From a virus: a DNA stretch of 34,073 nt. Made by a program: the position numbers and the translations under genes. The stretch is taken from IMG/VR virus record IMGVR_UViG_3300025132_000014, positions 1-34,073 of that record. The stretch is one strand, 5' to 3'. Below are positions 3,390 to 6,543 of the stretch, piece after piece (position 1 is the stretch's first letter; each line of letters begins with the position of its first letter). Below the pieces are notes generated by a model. It was not told where the DNA came from. It did no database searches and worked only from the letters and a program-made list of their open reading frames with translations.

Positions 3390-3647
3390 TTATTTTAAAC
3401 ATTCCGAACCAGTTGCAGAGTAACCAGCAATATCTACCCAGCTATCCTGATGGTCTGGCGTTTCTATCAATCTTGCTATCTTAACTGCAACCATGCACAA
3501 AGCCACATCAGTAGCTTTAACTTCTTTCTCGAGTATAACAGACCAGAGAGCAGCTATTCTCTCATGGTTAGTCTTAATATCGCCATAATCTTTACCTCTA
3601 TGAGAAACAACCTTTAATGCTTCTTTTAATAACTGCTCTCTATTCAT
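3390..3647 (-). CDS. DUF6378-like phage protein
   Basis: The 85-residue product matches my recollection of the DUF6378 group found in many phage genomes. Shared features are an N-terminal helix ending HRGKDYGD, a central ATDVALCMVAVKIARL helix and a C-terminal DSWVDIAGY. The D-x-x-L-C/M and DSW-D-x-A-GY pattern resembles all-alpha MazG-type nucleotide hydrolase folds, though function is unproven. I start at 3647, where GAGG lies 9 bp upstream, rather than at the in-frame ATG at 3662. The start overlaps the stop of the preceding gene. It is the last gene of the leftward methyltransferase operon. Confidence 0.75.
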   Translation of the reverse strand: MNREQLLKEALKVVSHRGKDYGDIKTNHERIAALWSVILEKEVKATDVALCMVAVKIARLIETPDHQDSWVDIAGYSATGSECLK

Positions 3648-3894
3648 CTTTATAAACCTCATGTATCTTTTTACTTACATAACCATGCACAAACTTTTCC
3701 GCACTTCTTCCAATTCTTTCCATATCAGTAAGCTCTTTAAAAAATATCCAATATCCCTCAAGAGAAAGCTCAACCATTCTTTCATTGTTAAGATTCTTCA
3801 TAAAAGGCATTTGCTTTACACTATTAACAAAACTTTCTTTTGTCTTGTATGACCTTGCATACTTGCGGAGTAACATAGCATCTCTATTTGTCAT
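3640..3894 (-). CDS. Uncharacterised 84-aa basic protein
   Basis: The start at 3894 (MTNRDAMLLRKYARSYKTKE) follows GGA by 8 bp and overlaps the stop of the zinc-ribbon gene. An ATG 12 bp upstream at 3906 has no ribosome-binding site. The product is basic and helical, with an aromatic patch GYWIFFKELTD and the tail KFVHGYVSKKIHEVYKDE. No known domain. Tight overlaps on both sides show it belongs to this operon. Confidence 0.65.
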   Translation of the reverse strand: MTNRDAMLLRKYARSYKTKESFVNSVKQMPFMKNLNNERMVELSLEGYWIFFKELTDMERIGRSAEKFVHGYVSKKIHEVYKDE

Positions 3895-4039
3895 CTTTTT
3901 TTCCATGAAAAACTAATACAAAAGACTCACATTCTTTGTTTGGACAAGATAAATTAGTCTCAATTAAATGGTCGTTATCTTCTTCTGTGCCGAAGTCTCC
4001 ACCCCAAATTAATTCTGTATCACAAGCATAACATTTCAT
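3884..4039 (-). CDS. Small zinc-ribbon protein (51 aa)
   Basis: The start at 4039 forms an ATGA overlap with the stop of the preceding nuclease gene and has GGGAG 8 bp upstream. A longer in-frame start at 4069 is inside that gene. The product has two cysteine pairs, C-Y-A-C near residue 3 and C-P-N-K-E-C near residue 33, spaced like a small zinc ribbon, with an acidic linker between them. Such proteins bind nucleic acid or proteins. Here it sits between a nuclease and unknown genes in a DNA-modification operon, so a DNA-linked role is plausible but not shown. Confidence 0.7.
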   Translation of the reverse strand: MKCYACDTELIWGGDFGTEEDNDHLIETNLSCPNKECESFVLVFHGKKDDK

Positions 4040-4416
4040 TTTATTTTCTCCCTCACAATAAAAAACCAAGTGTCAATATCAACCTCACAAACGAGGTCTT
4101 TTGCACCAGAAAAATTATGTTCAAAAACATTTAATCGTAGCACACATTTAATAGGACAATTATTATATTTATAAATAAGAACTGGCTCCCTATCTCCGCA
4201 ATTACTTATAGTTTGCTGCCACCAGCTTTCTTTATAACTATTAGATCCAGACTTTTGATATGCTTTACATTCAATACTCCAACCAGGTATTTCTATATCA
4301 GCACCACCAACTTGATACTGGTCTAGGTTTCTCTTGGCTTCATAACCCAAAGAATCTTTAATGAGAGAGCAAATCTTTCTCTCAAAAGCTGCACCTTTAT
4401 CCCTGCTATTCGCCAT
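4036..4416 (-). CDS. PD-(D/E)XK nuclease, Holliday-junction-resolvase-like
   Basis: From the ATG at 4416 the product has 126 residues. The N-terminus SRDKGAAFERKICSLIKD carries the glutamate (E12) found in archaeal-Hjc-like and phage resolvases. It is followed by KRNLDQYQVGGADIEI with D40 and then WSIECKAY with E49-x-K51, a complete PD-(D/E)XK metal site. Such enzymes cut branched recombination or replication intermediates. The start lies within the end of the methyltransferase gene (ATGGCGAATAG). Sitting beside a C5 methyltransferase, it could instead be a cognate restriction nuclease, but its small size and the conserved N-terminal motif favour a resolvase. Confidence 0.8.
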   Translation of the reverse strand: MANSRDKGAAFERKICSLIKDSLGYEAKRNLDQYQVGGADIEIPGWSIECKAYQKSGSNSYKESWWQQTISNCGDREPVLIYKYNNCPIKCVLRLNVFEHNFSGAKDLVCEVDIDTWFFIVREKIK

Positions 4417-5362
4417 ACTCTGCAATCTTAATCGCATAAAATAATTCTGCTGCTACCTGTGGCACAATACTATTCCCTAACGCCATCAACTTTTTTGTCC
4501 TGTCTCTTTGGTTTTGGACAACTCTTGGGATGTCTTTTGGTTCTTCGGAGAAATGTCCAGATAATGCTTCGGATAACCCATCATCCATGTAACCCAATCT
4601 GCGTTGAGTTGTAGTGGTTTCTTTTCTTTGTTGCTTAAATACTGAACTGCTACATCTAGTGTGTCGTAACTGATCTTCCCATTTCTTATCCTTCCCCCTT
4701 CGTAACCCCCCTTGTAATCTCTTGTTGATGGTGTTGGGTACATCATCATGGTTTTCTGATCTACTTGCTCCCTCAAATTGCCTGGTCGTTTCCTGCCCTT
4801 TCTGTGTCCTTCCTGCAACTTCTTCGTTGCTTCCTCTGATCTTGGTGGCAAGTGATCCATTGTGTTCGGAGTTGCCAGTAATGAATACTCTGTGTCGTAT
4901 GTGTGGGGCATTTTTACTTGCAGCTGGAATAACAACCGATTGAACGGAGTAACCTTCGTTTTCCAAATCAGTTTGCACTTGTTCGAATAAAACCCCTTCG
5001 TTGATATTAATAAGACCGACAACATTTTCTGCAATGACCCATTTCGCTTTGCAATCCTTAATAATTCTAAACATTTCATCCCAGAGCCACCGATCATCTT
5101 CTGTTGCTTTTTGTAGTCCTGCTTGGCTAACTGGTTGGCAGGGAAATCCTCCTGCAACGATATCAATTCTTCCAAGTCCAGTTGCATTTATTGTCCTAAC
5201 ATCATCATATATCGGTACATCTTTCCAATGTTTGCGAAGTACCTGCTGACAGAATTCATTCTGTTCACAGAAAGCAATTGTTTTATATCCACCAACAAGT
5301 TTTTCTGCTGCGTAACTAAACCCACCAATTCCACTAAACAAATCAAGTAAACGCATAACCAT
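4406..5362 (-). CDS. dcm-like: C5-cytosine DNA methyltransferase
   Basis: The product of 318 residues methylates cytosine at C5 using S-adenosylmethionine. All core motifs are present: I (DLFSGIGGFS, from residue 7), IV with catalytic PCQ (C75), VI (ENV, 112-114), VIII (R156-x-R158) and X (GNSIVPQ, 296-302). The target-recognition region between VIII and X is short. Phages use such enzymes to evade host restriction. The start at 5362 has AGGAAG 5 bp upstream and lies just after the HTH stop. The odd feature is that bases 4486-5187 encode a second protein-like sequence in another minus-strand frame, annotated separately. Third-position GC rises from about 5 of 30 codons near the N-terminus to about 8 of 20 within the overlap. 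Confidence 0.93.
   Translation of the reverse strand: MVMRLLDLFSGIGGFSYAAEKLVGGYKTIAFCEQNEFCQQVLRKHWKDVPIYDDVRTINATGLGRIDIVAGGFPCQPVSQAGLQKATEDDRWLWDEMFRIIKDCKAKWVIAENVVGLININEGVLFEQVQTDLENEGYSVQSVVIPAASKNAPHIRHRVFITGNSEHNGSLATKIRGSNEEVAGRTQKGQETTRQFEGASRSENHDDVPNTINKRLQGGLRRGKDKKWEDQLRHTRCSSSVFKQQRKETTTTQRRLGYMDDGLSEALSGHFSEEPKDIPRVVQNQRDRTKKLMALGNSIVPQVAAELFYAIKIAEYGE
4486..5187 (-). CDS. Overprinted gene inside the methyltransferase: TPT-motif phage 'methyltransferase-associated' protein
   Basis: A 233-residue frame lies wholly inside the methyltransferase gene on the same strand, shifted by one base. It looks like a real protein. From memory it matches a family of separate phage proteins often labelled DNA methyltransferase, with these features in order: LQEDFPANQ, SGMKCLELL, CKLIWKTKVTPFNRLLFQL, a LLATPNTMDHLPPRSEEA block, a YPTPSTRDYKGG block and LNADWVTWMMGYP. 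The ATG at 5187 has AGGA 6 bp upstream. None of the methyltransferase catalytic motifs is in this frame. The family hallmark SG-x-KCLELL is exactly the shifted reading of the methyltransferase's DRWLWDEM. Function unknown. The alternatives are a chance ORF or a frameshift product; the ordered motif match argues against chance. Confidence 0.6.
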   Translation of the reverse strand: MQLDLEELISLQEDFPANQLAKQDYKKQQKMIGGSGMKCLELLRIAKRNGSLQKMLSVLLISTKGFYSNKCKLIWKTKVTPFNRLLFQLQVKMPHTYDTEYSLLATPNTMDHLPPRSEEATKKLQEGHRKGRKRPGNLREQVDQKTMMMYPTPSTRDYKGGYEGGRIRNGKISYDTLDVAVQYLSNKEKKPLQLNADWVTWMMGYPKHYLDISPKNQKTSQELSKTKETGQKS

Positions 5363-5363
5363 A

Positions 5364-5576
5364 TCATCTTCCTACCATCTTCTCCTGATGCTCTTTCATA
5401 AAGTCATTTGCCTTTACCTGTCCTTGTGTTGCCATCTCTATCTTATTTAAAGAATCTGGTCTGGGAAACCTGTCACATTTTAATATCCGACAAATAGTGC
5501 TTCTCTTTAAGTCGCATAATTTAGCAAACTTATATTGAGAAATACCTTTTTGTTTTAAGTAATCTTTTAAATACAT
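5364..5576 (-). CDS. Cro-like HTH regulator
   Basis: The 70-residue product is almost entirely an XRE/Cro-type HTH: MYLKDYLKQKGISQYKFAKL, then CDLKRSTICRILKCDRFPRP, with a recognition helix RSTICRIL. It probably autoregulates the divergent region next to it. No Shine-Dalgarno sequence precedes the ATG, so the message may be leaderless or nearly so, as with lambda cI. It is the first gene of the leftward operon, ahead of the methyltransferase (stop 2 bp before that start). It has no cleavage or oligomerisation domain. Confidence 0.85.
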   Translation of the reverse strand: MYLKDYLKQKGISQYKFAKLCDLKRSTICRILKCDRFPRPDSLNKIEMATQGQVKANDFMKEHQEKMVGR

Positions 5577-5655: not shown

Positions 5656-6543
5656 ATGACATTACCACAATACAGAGAAAAGTTAGGCAGTTACCACGAA
5701 TCAGCAAGTAATGGTAATATGCCTAAAGACCAAATGGCATTGAAGTTATATTGCCGTTCACAGCTTAAAGTTTCTTTTCCAGATGCAACACGAATGATGT
5801 CTGGTAGAATAGTTCAATTAGGCGTAGACCACCACAAAGGTTTAATAGATTTTAGTCCAATACAAGGACAACAAGAGGGTGTTGAGATAAATGAAGCAAT
5901 AAGACATGCATTGACAGATTATCAACTATACAACCCTCGCACCTTTGATGACGGCAAAGACAAGGAGGAGTTAGAAACTTTCCAAGAATACATACCAGAT
6001 ATGATAAAGGTAGCCGTTGAGGGATTGAATGAATATTTCCAGAATGTCAACACTATTGATGGAGAGTATGGCAAAGAATACAAAGAGCCAAGAATAGATG
6101 TTCCTATATTATTATATCAGGATTATTCAGGTGGTGGTAAGCAGATAGACTTAAAATGTCATTTACCATTACGAAACCCACCAAAGAAAGATGGCACAAG
6201 AACTTGGAGAGTTCCTAAACCAAAGACAGAACCATCAGATAATTGGGTTAAGCAACAGGCAGTCTATTGGAAAGCAACAGGACAAAAACCAGCTTTACTT
6301 TCTGTTACTGCATCAGATTATAACATCATAGATGAAACGAATTGTGAGTTATTACAAGAAGATAATCTTCAAATAGCTTATAATGAAATGGTAAAATCTT
6401 GGGAAGTTACTCAGAATTTACTTAAAGCAAGCAATGGTTCGTGGAAAACTTTATGTAGTCTTATTCAACCAGACATGAATGAGATAGCCAGGATGCACGG
6501 ACCAGAGTTTGTTCAAATCGCAAAACAACTTTGGGAGTATTAA
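5656..6543 (+). CDS. RecB-like PD-(D/E)XK exonuclease (recombination partner)
   Basis: The 295-residue product has a RecB/Cas4-type nuclease core: GGGKQIDLKC with D165-x-K167, followed by WVKQQAVYWKATG carrying the Q-x-x-x-Y motif (Q200/Q201 to Y204) typical of the RecB nuclease family. The N-terminal helical region (QMALKLYCRSQLKVSF, then GRIVQLGVDHHKG) matches the usual entry helices. Nucleases of this type make single-stranded tails for an annealing protein, and an ERF-like annealing protein is encoded two genes downstream. AAGGGG precedes the start. First gene of the rightward recombination operon. Confidence 0.85.
   Translation: MTLPQYREKLGSYHESASNGNMPKDQMALKLYCRSQLKVSFPDATRMMSGRIVQLGVDHHKGLIDFSPIQGQQEGVEINEAIRHALTDYQLYNPRTFDDGKDKEELETFQEYIPDMIKVAVEGLNEYFQNVNTIDGEYGKEYKEPRIDVPILLYQDYSGGGKQIDLKCHLPLRNPPKKDGTRTWRVPKPKTEPSDNWVKQQAVYWKATGQKPALLSVTASDYNIIDETNCELLQEDNLQIAYNEMVKSWEVTQNLLKASNGSWKTLCSLIQPDMNEIARMHGPEFVQIAKQLWEY

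What the first reader, a model, noticed from the sequence alone, without database searches (positions are those of the whole stretch)
4486..5187. Overprinted protein inside a C5 methyltransferase gene
Seen: two long frames on the same strand both look protein-coding over about 700 bp. One holds every C5-methyltransferase motif. The other (233 codons, ATG with AGGA 6 bp upstream) holds ordered motifs (LQEDFPANQ, SGMKCLELL, KLIWKTKVTPFNRLLFQL, TPNTMDHLPPRS, PTPSTRDYKGG, LNADWVTWMMGYP) of a protein family I know as separate phage proteins. Family hallmarks are literal frame-shifted readings of methyltransferase motifs: GGFPCQP gives EDFPANQ, and DRWLWDEM gives GGSGMKCL. This suggests the whole family arose by overprinting of a dcm gene and then spread, sometimes as a standalone gene. 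By hand count, third-position GC is about 5/30 codons at the methyltransferase start but about 8/20 and 9/20 in the two frames inside the overlap (about 13/32 near the end, so not clean).
Basis: partly seen in the sequence, partly recalled or inferred. Interest (0 to 1): 0.87.

Follow-up and report, generated by a model that had tools for sequence, protein, structure and literature searches.

The report
Hidden second subunit inside methyltransferase gene
This phage DNA-methylation gene is read in two frames: one gives the catalytic body of the enzyme and the other, never noticed in most annotated genomes, very probably gives a second subunit that recognises the DNA, an arrangement known from one old bacterial enzyme but seen here across many phages and bacteria.

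Summary
A 233-codon frame (window 5187-4486, minus) lies inside a 318-codon C5-methyltransferase gene (5362-4406) and is kept open by selection. Synonymous shuffles never reproduce it (0/20,000). The frame is open in relatives from phages, prophages and many bacterial phyla, and always overlaps a methyltransferase in the same relative frame. In 65 independent pairs, the methyltransferase frame is conserved outside the target-recognition region but neutral inside it (dN/dS 0.89), where the other frame is conserved (0.27). AlphaFold leaves exactly that stretch of the methyltransferase disordered. Methyltransferases with motif IX in the main frame never carry the second frame, and those with the second frame lack motif IX.

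Best reading: a two-subunit C5-methyltransferase. Alpha carries motifs I-VIII and X. Beta, started internally, carries the target-recognition modules and a motif-IX-like end. This works like M.EcoHK31I (alpha I-VIII and X; beta IX); homology to that enzyme could not be tested. The likely new parts are the recognition modules lying in the beta frame, their cassette-like shuffling, and how widespread and unannotated it is.

The parts
4406..5362 (-). Alpha: C5-cytosine methyltransferase frame (motifs I-VIII, then a long linker, then motif X)
   Evidence: PF00145 E=2.3e-43, aligned only to profile 1-221/324; matches M.HhaI 12-168 only; profile match to canonical enzymes ends at motif VIII
4486..5187 (-). 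Beta: 233-aa overlapping frame (+1 relative to alpha), target-recognition and motif-IX-like subunit
   Evidence: PHROG 1008 E=3.1e-27; open in relatives; beta-frame dN/dS 0.27 in the recognition stretch
5194..5197 (-). AGGA ribosome-binding-site-like sequence, 6 nt before the beta ATG; in-frame TAA directly precedes the ATG
   Evidence: Sequence; Shine-Dalgarno-like 5-mers or longer before beta starts in 81/148 loci against a null mean of 13, maximum 23
5132..5152 (-). Alpha motif IV GGFPCQP (catalytic Cys); beta reads EDFPANQ across it
   Evidence: Translations; P74 and C75 invariant in the alpha alignment
4883..4909 (-). Alpha motif VIII APHIRHRVF, the last part of alpha that matches canonical C5 enzymes before motif X
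   Evidence: R156/R158 invariant; end of HhaI and profile alignments
4553..4858 (-). Alpha residues 169-270: linker read through the recognition region, predicted disordered and neutrally evolving
   Evidence: pLDDT <50 throughout; alpha dN/dS 0.89 [0.75-1.05] across 65 pairs
4609..4878 (-). Beta recognition modules (LLATPNTMDHLPPRS..., MYPTPSTRDYKGGYEGGRIRNGKISYDTLDVAVQ...)
   Evidence: Beta dN/dS 0.27 [0.24-0.30]; modules shuffled between close relatives
4552..4608 (-). Beta motif-IX-like end LNADWVTWMMGYPKHYLDI
   Evidence: Only stretch aligning to canonical C5 enzymes, onto motif IX, but weakly (E=0.066; E=0.024); nearly invariant in the beta alignment
4448..4486 (-). Alpha motif X (LMALGNSIVPQVA), starting where beta stops
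   Evidence: pLDDT 84-95 helices; G296, N297 nearly invariant
5364..5576 (-). Upstream small HTH repressor-like gene in the same run of genes
   Evidence: HTH_3 E=3.6e-5; phage repressor families
4036..4437 (-). Downstream PD-(D/E)XK / resolvase-like nuclease gene, overlapping the alpha end by 32 nt
   Evidence: PF24608 E=1.1e-9; phrog_244 E=4.3e-19

Best explanation
The locus encodes a two-polypeptide C5-cytosine DNA methyltransferase in overlapping frames. Alpha (318 aa) carries the AdoMet-binding and catalytic motifs I-VIII and motif X. Its own reading of the region between VIII and X is only a translated, disordered linker. Beta (233 aa) is translated from an internal ATG with its own ribosome-binding site, in the +1 frame. 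It carries the target-recognition module(s) and the motif-IX-like end, that is, the small domain that alpha lacks, and would join alpha to make an active enzyme. Recognition modules are exchanged between phages like the TRD cassettes of multispecific phage methyltransferases. In a phage with no linked restriction enzyme, the likely use is to methylate its own DNA against host restriction. Shown here: both frames are open and selected, with selection switching frame at the recognition region, and motif IX and beta are mutually exclusive. Inferred: assembly of alpha with beta, DNA recognition by beta, motif IX identity, and biological role.
For: (1) Selection switches frame: alpha/beta dN/dS are 0.16/0.76 upstream of beta, 0.21/0.49 over motifs IV-VIII, 0.89/0.27 over the recognition region, 0.34/0.26 over the beta end and 0.20/0.83 downstream; intervals do not overlap where it matters. 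Pair sign test in the recognition region is 50:1 for changes at the beta wobble, against 1:52 upstream. Canonical enzymes show no switch, with the third codon position at 0.51 both before and after motif VIII. (2) Alpha model: catalytic core and motif X helices confident, residues 169-270 all below pLDDT 50; Foldseek to M.HhaI covers about 164 residues. (3) Complementarity: none of the methyltransferases with motif IX in the main frame has beta, and all 13 loci with beta in that sample lack it there (variant motif IX sequences read). (4) Beta overlaps alpha in the same relative frame in all 184 ORFs of 179 sequences and in Enterobacteriaceae hits. (5) Internal starts have Shine-Dalgarno-like sites in 81/148 loci against 13 expected, and beta is constrained from its start on, which argues for an internal start. 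(6) In L129 and L130 alpha stops about 10 residues after motif VIII and the beta frame runs on through the recognition region, the IX-like end and motif X: alpha's own reading of that region is dispensable. (7) Modules such as PTPSTRDHKGGYEGGRIRNGKISYDTLDVAVQ are swapped or moved among close relatives and recur in Salmonella phages and N15. (8) A published precedent for the motif split: M.EcoHK31I (PMC3404938).
Against: Motif IX similarity of beta is weak (hhalign E=0.066 and 0.024, probability 1-2%). Beta alone folds poorly (pLDDT 66, pTM 0.34) and has no PDB fold match or PDB sequence match; this is expected for an obligate subunit but is no support. No complex was modelled, and no protein or methylation data exist here. 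In the beta-end region alpha is also constrained (0.34), so part of that block serves both frames. A few loci have one frame broken (L273 beta; L163, L281 alpha).
Confidence: 0.86

Rival explanations
1. Programmed ribosomal frameshifting: one polypeptide of alpha motifs I-VIII joined to the beta recognition region, instead of or besides a separately started beta.
For: Both frames stay open together for about 100 codons before the recognition region, so a shift could occur there; the neutral alpha linker fits.
Against: Shine-Dalgarno-like sites precede beta starts far above chance and beta is constrained in the part before any such shift (0.49 against 0.76-0.83). A shifted product would lack motif X, which is kept in the alpha frame.
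Confidence: 0.06
2. Beta is an independent protein (for example a regulator or anti-restriction protein) that overprinted a dcm gene and has nothing to do with DNA recognition by alpha.
For: No significant profile or fold link to known recognition domains.
Against: Alpha has no folded or selected recognition domain of its own; beta and motif IX are mutually exclusive; no standalone beta; motif X joins beta in L129/L130.
Confidence: 0.06
3. Shadow frame: the second frame is similar in relatives only because methyltransferase motifs are conserved, and it is not translated.
For: In the first half the hallmarks are literal shadows of motifs IV-VIII, and alpha dominates there.
Against: 0/20,000 synonymous permutations keep the frame open; the recognition region is conserved in beta and neutral in alpha; canonical enzymes have a median open run of 0.20 of the gene in this frame against 0.76 here.
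Confidence: 0.02

Closest known systems
M.EcoHK31I (two-polypeptide C5-methyltransferase, YGGCCR)
   Same: Large subunit with motifs I-VIII and X, small polypeptide with motif IX (PMC3404938). From memory, not checked: the small polypeptide is read from another frame inside the large-subunit gene (Lee et al. 1995, not held).
   Different: That paper assigns the predicted recognition domain to the large subunit; here selection and the alpha model put it in the small one. Here beta length varies with several shuffled modules and the window has no linked restriction enzyme. Sequence homology untested.
M.AquI (split C5-methyltransferase)
   Same: Two polypeptides; catalytic motifs I-VIII on the first. 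L129/L130 match its layout with motifs IX and X on the second.
   Different: In the window motif X stays on alpha and the genes overlap along nearly all of beta.
Multispecific phage C5-methyltransferases (SPbeta/phi3T/rho11s type)
   Same: Variable number of exchangeable recognition modules between motif VIII and the end (from knowledge of that family; mosaic seen).
   Different: There the modules are in the main frame of one polypeptide.
PHROG 1008 ('DNA methyltransferase') and the 'g50 internal gene' of Paenibacillus larvae phages
   Same: Same protein family as beta; the overlap was noticed by annotators.
   Different: No function as a recognition subunit is stated; most records annotate only alpha.

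Membership tests
C5-cytosine DNA methyltransferase (PF00145), alpha | Motifs I, IV (PCQ), VI (ENV), VIII and X | tested here: met
   PF00145 E=2.3e-43; motif residues invariant or nearly so in alignment; fold match to M.HhaI
C5-cytosine DNA methyltransferase (PF00145), alpha | Recognition domain and motif IX in the same polypeptide | tested here: not met
   Profile match ends at motif VIII; no motif IX in beta-bearing loci; region disordered and neutral
M.EcoHK31I type (alpha I-VIII and X; beta IX) | Large subunit has I-VIII and X but not IX | tested here: met
   definition from PMC3404938
M.EcoHK31I type (alpha I-VIII and X; beta IX) | Small polypeptide carries motif IX | tested here: inconclusive
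   Only beta stretch aligning to canonical enzymes falls on motif IX, not significant
M.EcoHK31I type (alpha I-VIII and X; beta IX) | Small-subunit gene lies inside the large-subunit gene in another frame (recalled from the literature) | tested here: met
   that EcoHK31I itself has this is from memory
M.EcoHK31I type (alpha I-VIII and X; beta IX) | Both polypeptides needed for methylation | not testable with these tools
   Needs expression and a methylation assay
M.EcoHK31I type (alpha I-VIII and X; beta IX) | Sequence homology to EcoHK31I/EaeI proteins | not testable with these tools
   Their sequences could not be identified in the held collections; founding papers not held
M.AquI type | Motifs IX and X both on the second polypeptide | tested here: not met
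   Motif X is in alpha in the window; the layout is met only in L129 and L130
   0 standalone of 184 ORFs in 179 sequences; all Enterobacteriaceae hits overlap alpha

The most novel reading that the evidence does not exclude
A widespread, mostly unannotated class of phage and prophage C5-methyltransferases keeps its DNA-recognition domain in a second, overlapping frame. Each half overprints the other: beta is newly read across motifs IV-VIII and alpha is newly read across the recognition region. Recognition cassettes are traded between phages as DNA modules that must stay open in both frames.
Probability: 0.65. Interest if true: 0.75.

Novelty: new variant of a known kind. Interest (0 to 1): 0.62.

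Why it matters
Many phage, prophage and bacterial genes annotated simply as 'DNA cytosine methyltransferase', including gene 58 of the well-studied phage N15, appear to hide an unannotated partner that would set the enzyme's specificity. Cloned alpha genes would look inactive, and specificity predictions from alpha would be made on a meaningless linker. It also offers a long and widely conserved overlapping gene pair in which the selected frame switches along the gene, which makes it a good test case for how overlapping genes arise and for methods that detect them.

Tried and rejected
Pfam and NCBIfam scans of beta: nothing. PDB sequence searches with beta: nothing. Foldseek of the beta model: no match, model of low confidence. 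Profile comparison of beta with canonical enzymes: only a weak motif IX alignment. Literature: the founding M.EcoHK31I papers are not held; searches for overlapping methyltransferase genes found nothing pertinent. An EcoHK31I-like restriction system in E. coli was sought through similar DNA: only prophage-type loci were inspected. Shadow-frame artefact rejected by the selection and permutation tests. The recognition region of canonical enzymes was used as a control and behaves normally.

Full report
OBSERVATION. The window is a 34-kb virus record with terminase, head-tail, tail and lysozyme genes. On the minus strand, a small HTH gene (5576-5364), a C5-methyltransferase gene (alpha, 5362-4406, 318 aa) and a PD-(D/E)XK nuclease gene (4437-4036) follow each other. 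Inside alpha, in the +1 frame, lies a 233-codon ORF (beta, 5187-4486) with AGGA 6 nt before its ATG and an in-frame TAA just before the ATG. Permuting synonymous codons of alpha never keeps the frame open that long (0/20,000; 8.1 stops expected, 0 seen).

RELATIVES. tblastn finds beta in 113 phage records and in IMG/VR and GTDB contigs. Across 179 sequences, all 184 beta-like ORFs overlap a methyltransferase ORF in the same relative frame (some contigs are redundant). Among 295 Enterobacteriaceae genomes 23 have beta, and all the loci examined overlap alpha. No standalone copy was seen. Annotators of Paenibacillus larvae phages recorded it as 'g50 internal gene' or as a second 'DNA cytosine methyltransferase'; most records list only alpha, including phage N15 gene 58, which has an unannotated 215-codon beta. 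PHROG 1008 is the family (E=3.1e-27); Pfam and NCBIfam have no model for it.

SELECTION. In this overlap the alpha wobble base is the beta second base, and the beta wobble base is the alpha first base, so the two frames can be told apart. In 65 non-overlapping pairs of relatives, alpha/beta dN/dS are 0.16/0.76 upstream of beta, 0.21/0.49 across motifs IV-VIII, 0.89/0.27 in the recognition region, 0.34/0.26 at the beta end and 0.20/0.83 downstream. In the recognition region 50 of 51 pairs have more changes at the beta wobble; upstream 52 of 53 have more at the alpha wobble. Sixteen pairs of canonical enzymes show the ordinary pattern on both sides of motif VIII, and their +1 frame is open over a median 0.20 of the gene, against 0.76 in beta-bearing genes. 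So beta is a selected protein, and in the recognition region it is the only selected reading.

ANATOMY. Alpha matches M.HhaI only over motifs I-VIII. AlphaFold gives a confident core and motif X helices, with residues 169-270 entirely below pLDDT 50. In a sample of PF00145 genes, every one with motif IX in the main frame lacks beta, and all 13 with beta lack motif IX (the sequences missed by the motif pattern were read by eye and carry variant motif IX, apart from one truncated gene). The beta end, LNPxWVEWLMGFPxGW, is the only part that aligns to canonical enzymes, and it falls on motif IX, but weakly. In two unrelated bacteria (L129, L130) alpha stops about 10 residues after motif VIII, and the beta frame continues through the recognition region, the IX-like end and motif X; a sequencing error in one of them cannot be ruled out, but the same layout occurs twice.

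MODULES. Close relatives of the window share the beta start and end but differ in the number and identity of 'PTP...' modules, and the same module occurs at different places in different phages. Counts range from 1 to 6 by a simple pattern. The module KGGYxGGRxRNGKxSxDxLDV recurs in Salmonella P2-like phages and N15. This is how recognition cassettes of multispecific phage methyltransferases behave.

TRANSLATION. Shine-Dalgarno-like sites precede beta starts in 81 of 148 loci against 13 expected, and beta is constrained between its start and the recognition region (0.49 against 0.76-0.83 outside; difference 0.29, 95% 0.17-0.40). Internal initiation is favoured over frameshifting.

COMPARISON. 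The split of motifs (alpha I-VIII and X, beta IX) is that of M.EcoHK31I (PMC3404938). I recall, but could not check, that its small subunit is also read from another frame inside the large-subunit gene (Lee, Kam and Shaw 1995). The present family works like it; membership by sequence is untested. PMC3404938 places the predicted recognition domain of M.EcoHK31I in the large subunit; the present data argue for the small one in this family.

ORIGIN (inference). The simplest history is a single-chain enzyme whose stretch from after motif VIII to before motif X fell out of frame, with an internal start then reading it. Beta then overprints motifs IV-VIII and alpha overprints the recognition region. 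No ancestral single-chain form was found here.

VERDICT. It is not a free-living overprinted family but very probably the missing subunit of the same enzyme: a variant of a known kind, far more common than its annotation suggests.

Noticed in passing
L250:1681-2328 (phage N15 gene 58 region): The classical phage N15 has an unannotated 215-codon beta frame inside gene 58, annotated only as a cytosine methyltransferase.
   Followed up: yes
L129:2751-4050 and L130:2238-3522: Natural variants in which alpha ends just after motif VIII and the beta frame carries the recognition region, IX-like end and motif X, like M.AquI.
   Followed up: partly
L005:1219-2162 (uncultured phage KM23-C739): Alpha is broken by a frame change near its start in the deposited record, so annotators called beta 'putative cytosine-specific methyltransferase' after a short alpha fragment.
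   Followed up: partly
L253:1489-2658 (E. coli ECCTRSRTH03): A beta-type alpha gene in a prophage is annotated as two incomplete pseudogene pieces.
   Followed up: no
window 4036-4437: A PD-(D/E)XK/resolvase-like nuclease gene overlaps the alpha end by 32 nt; E. coli prophage copies have a VRR-NUC nuclease gene just upstream of alpha (L254).
   Followed up: partly
window 5656-6543: A divergently oriented 295-aa ORF with no Pfam or PHROG match at E<=0.001.
   Followed up: no
window 3390-3662: DUF6378 protein (E=5.9e-30) downstream of the nuclease gene.
   Followed up: no
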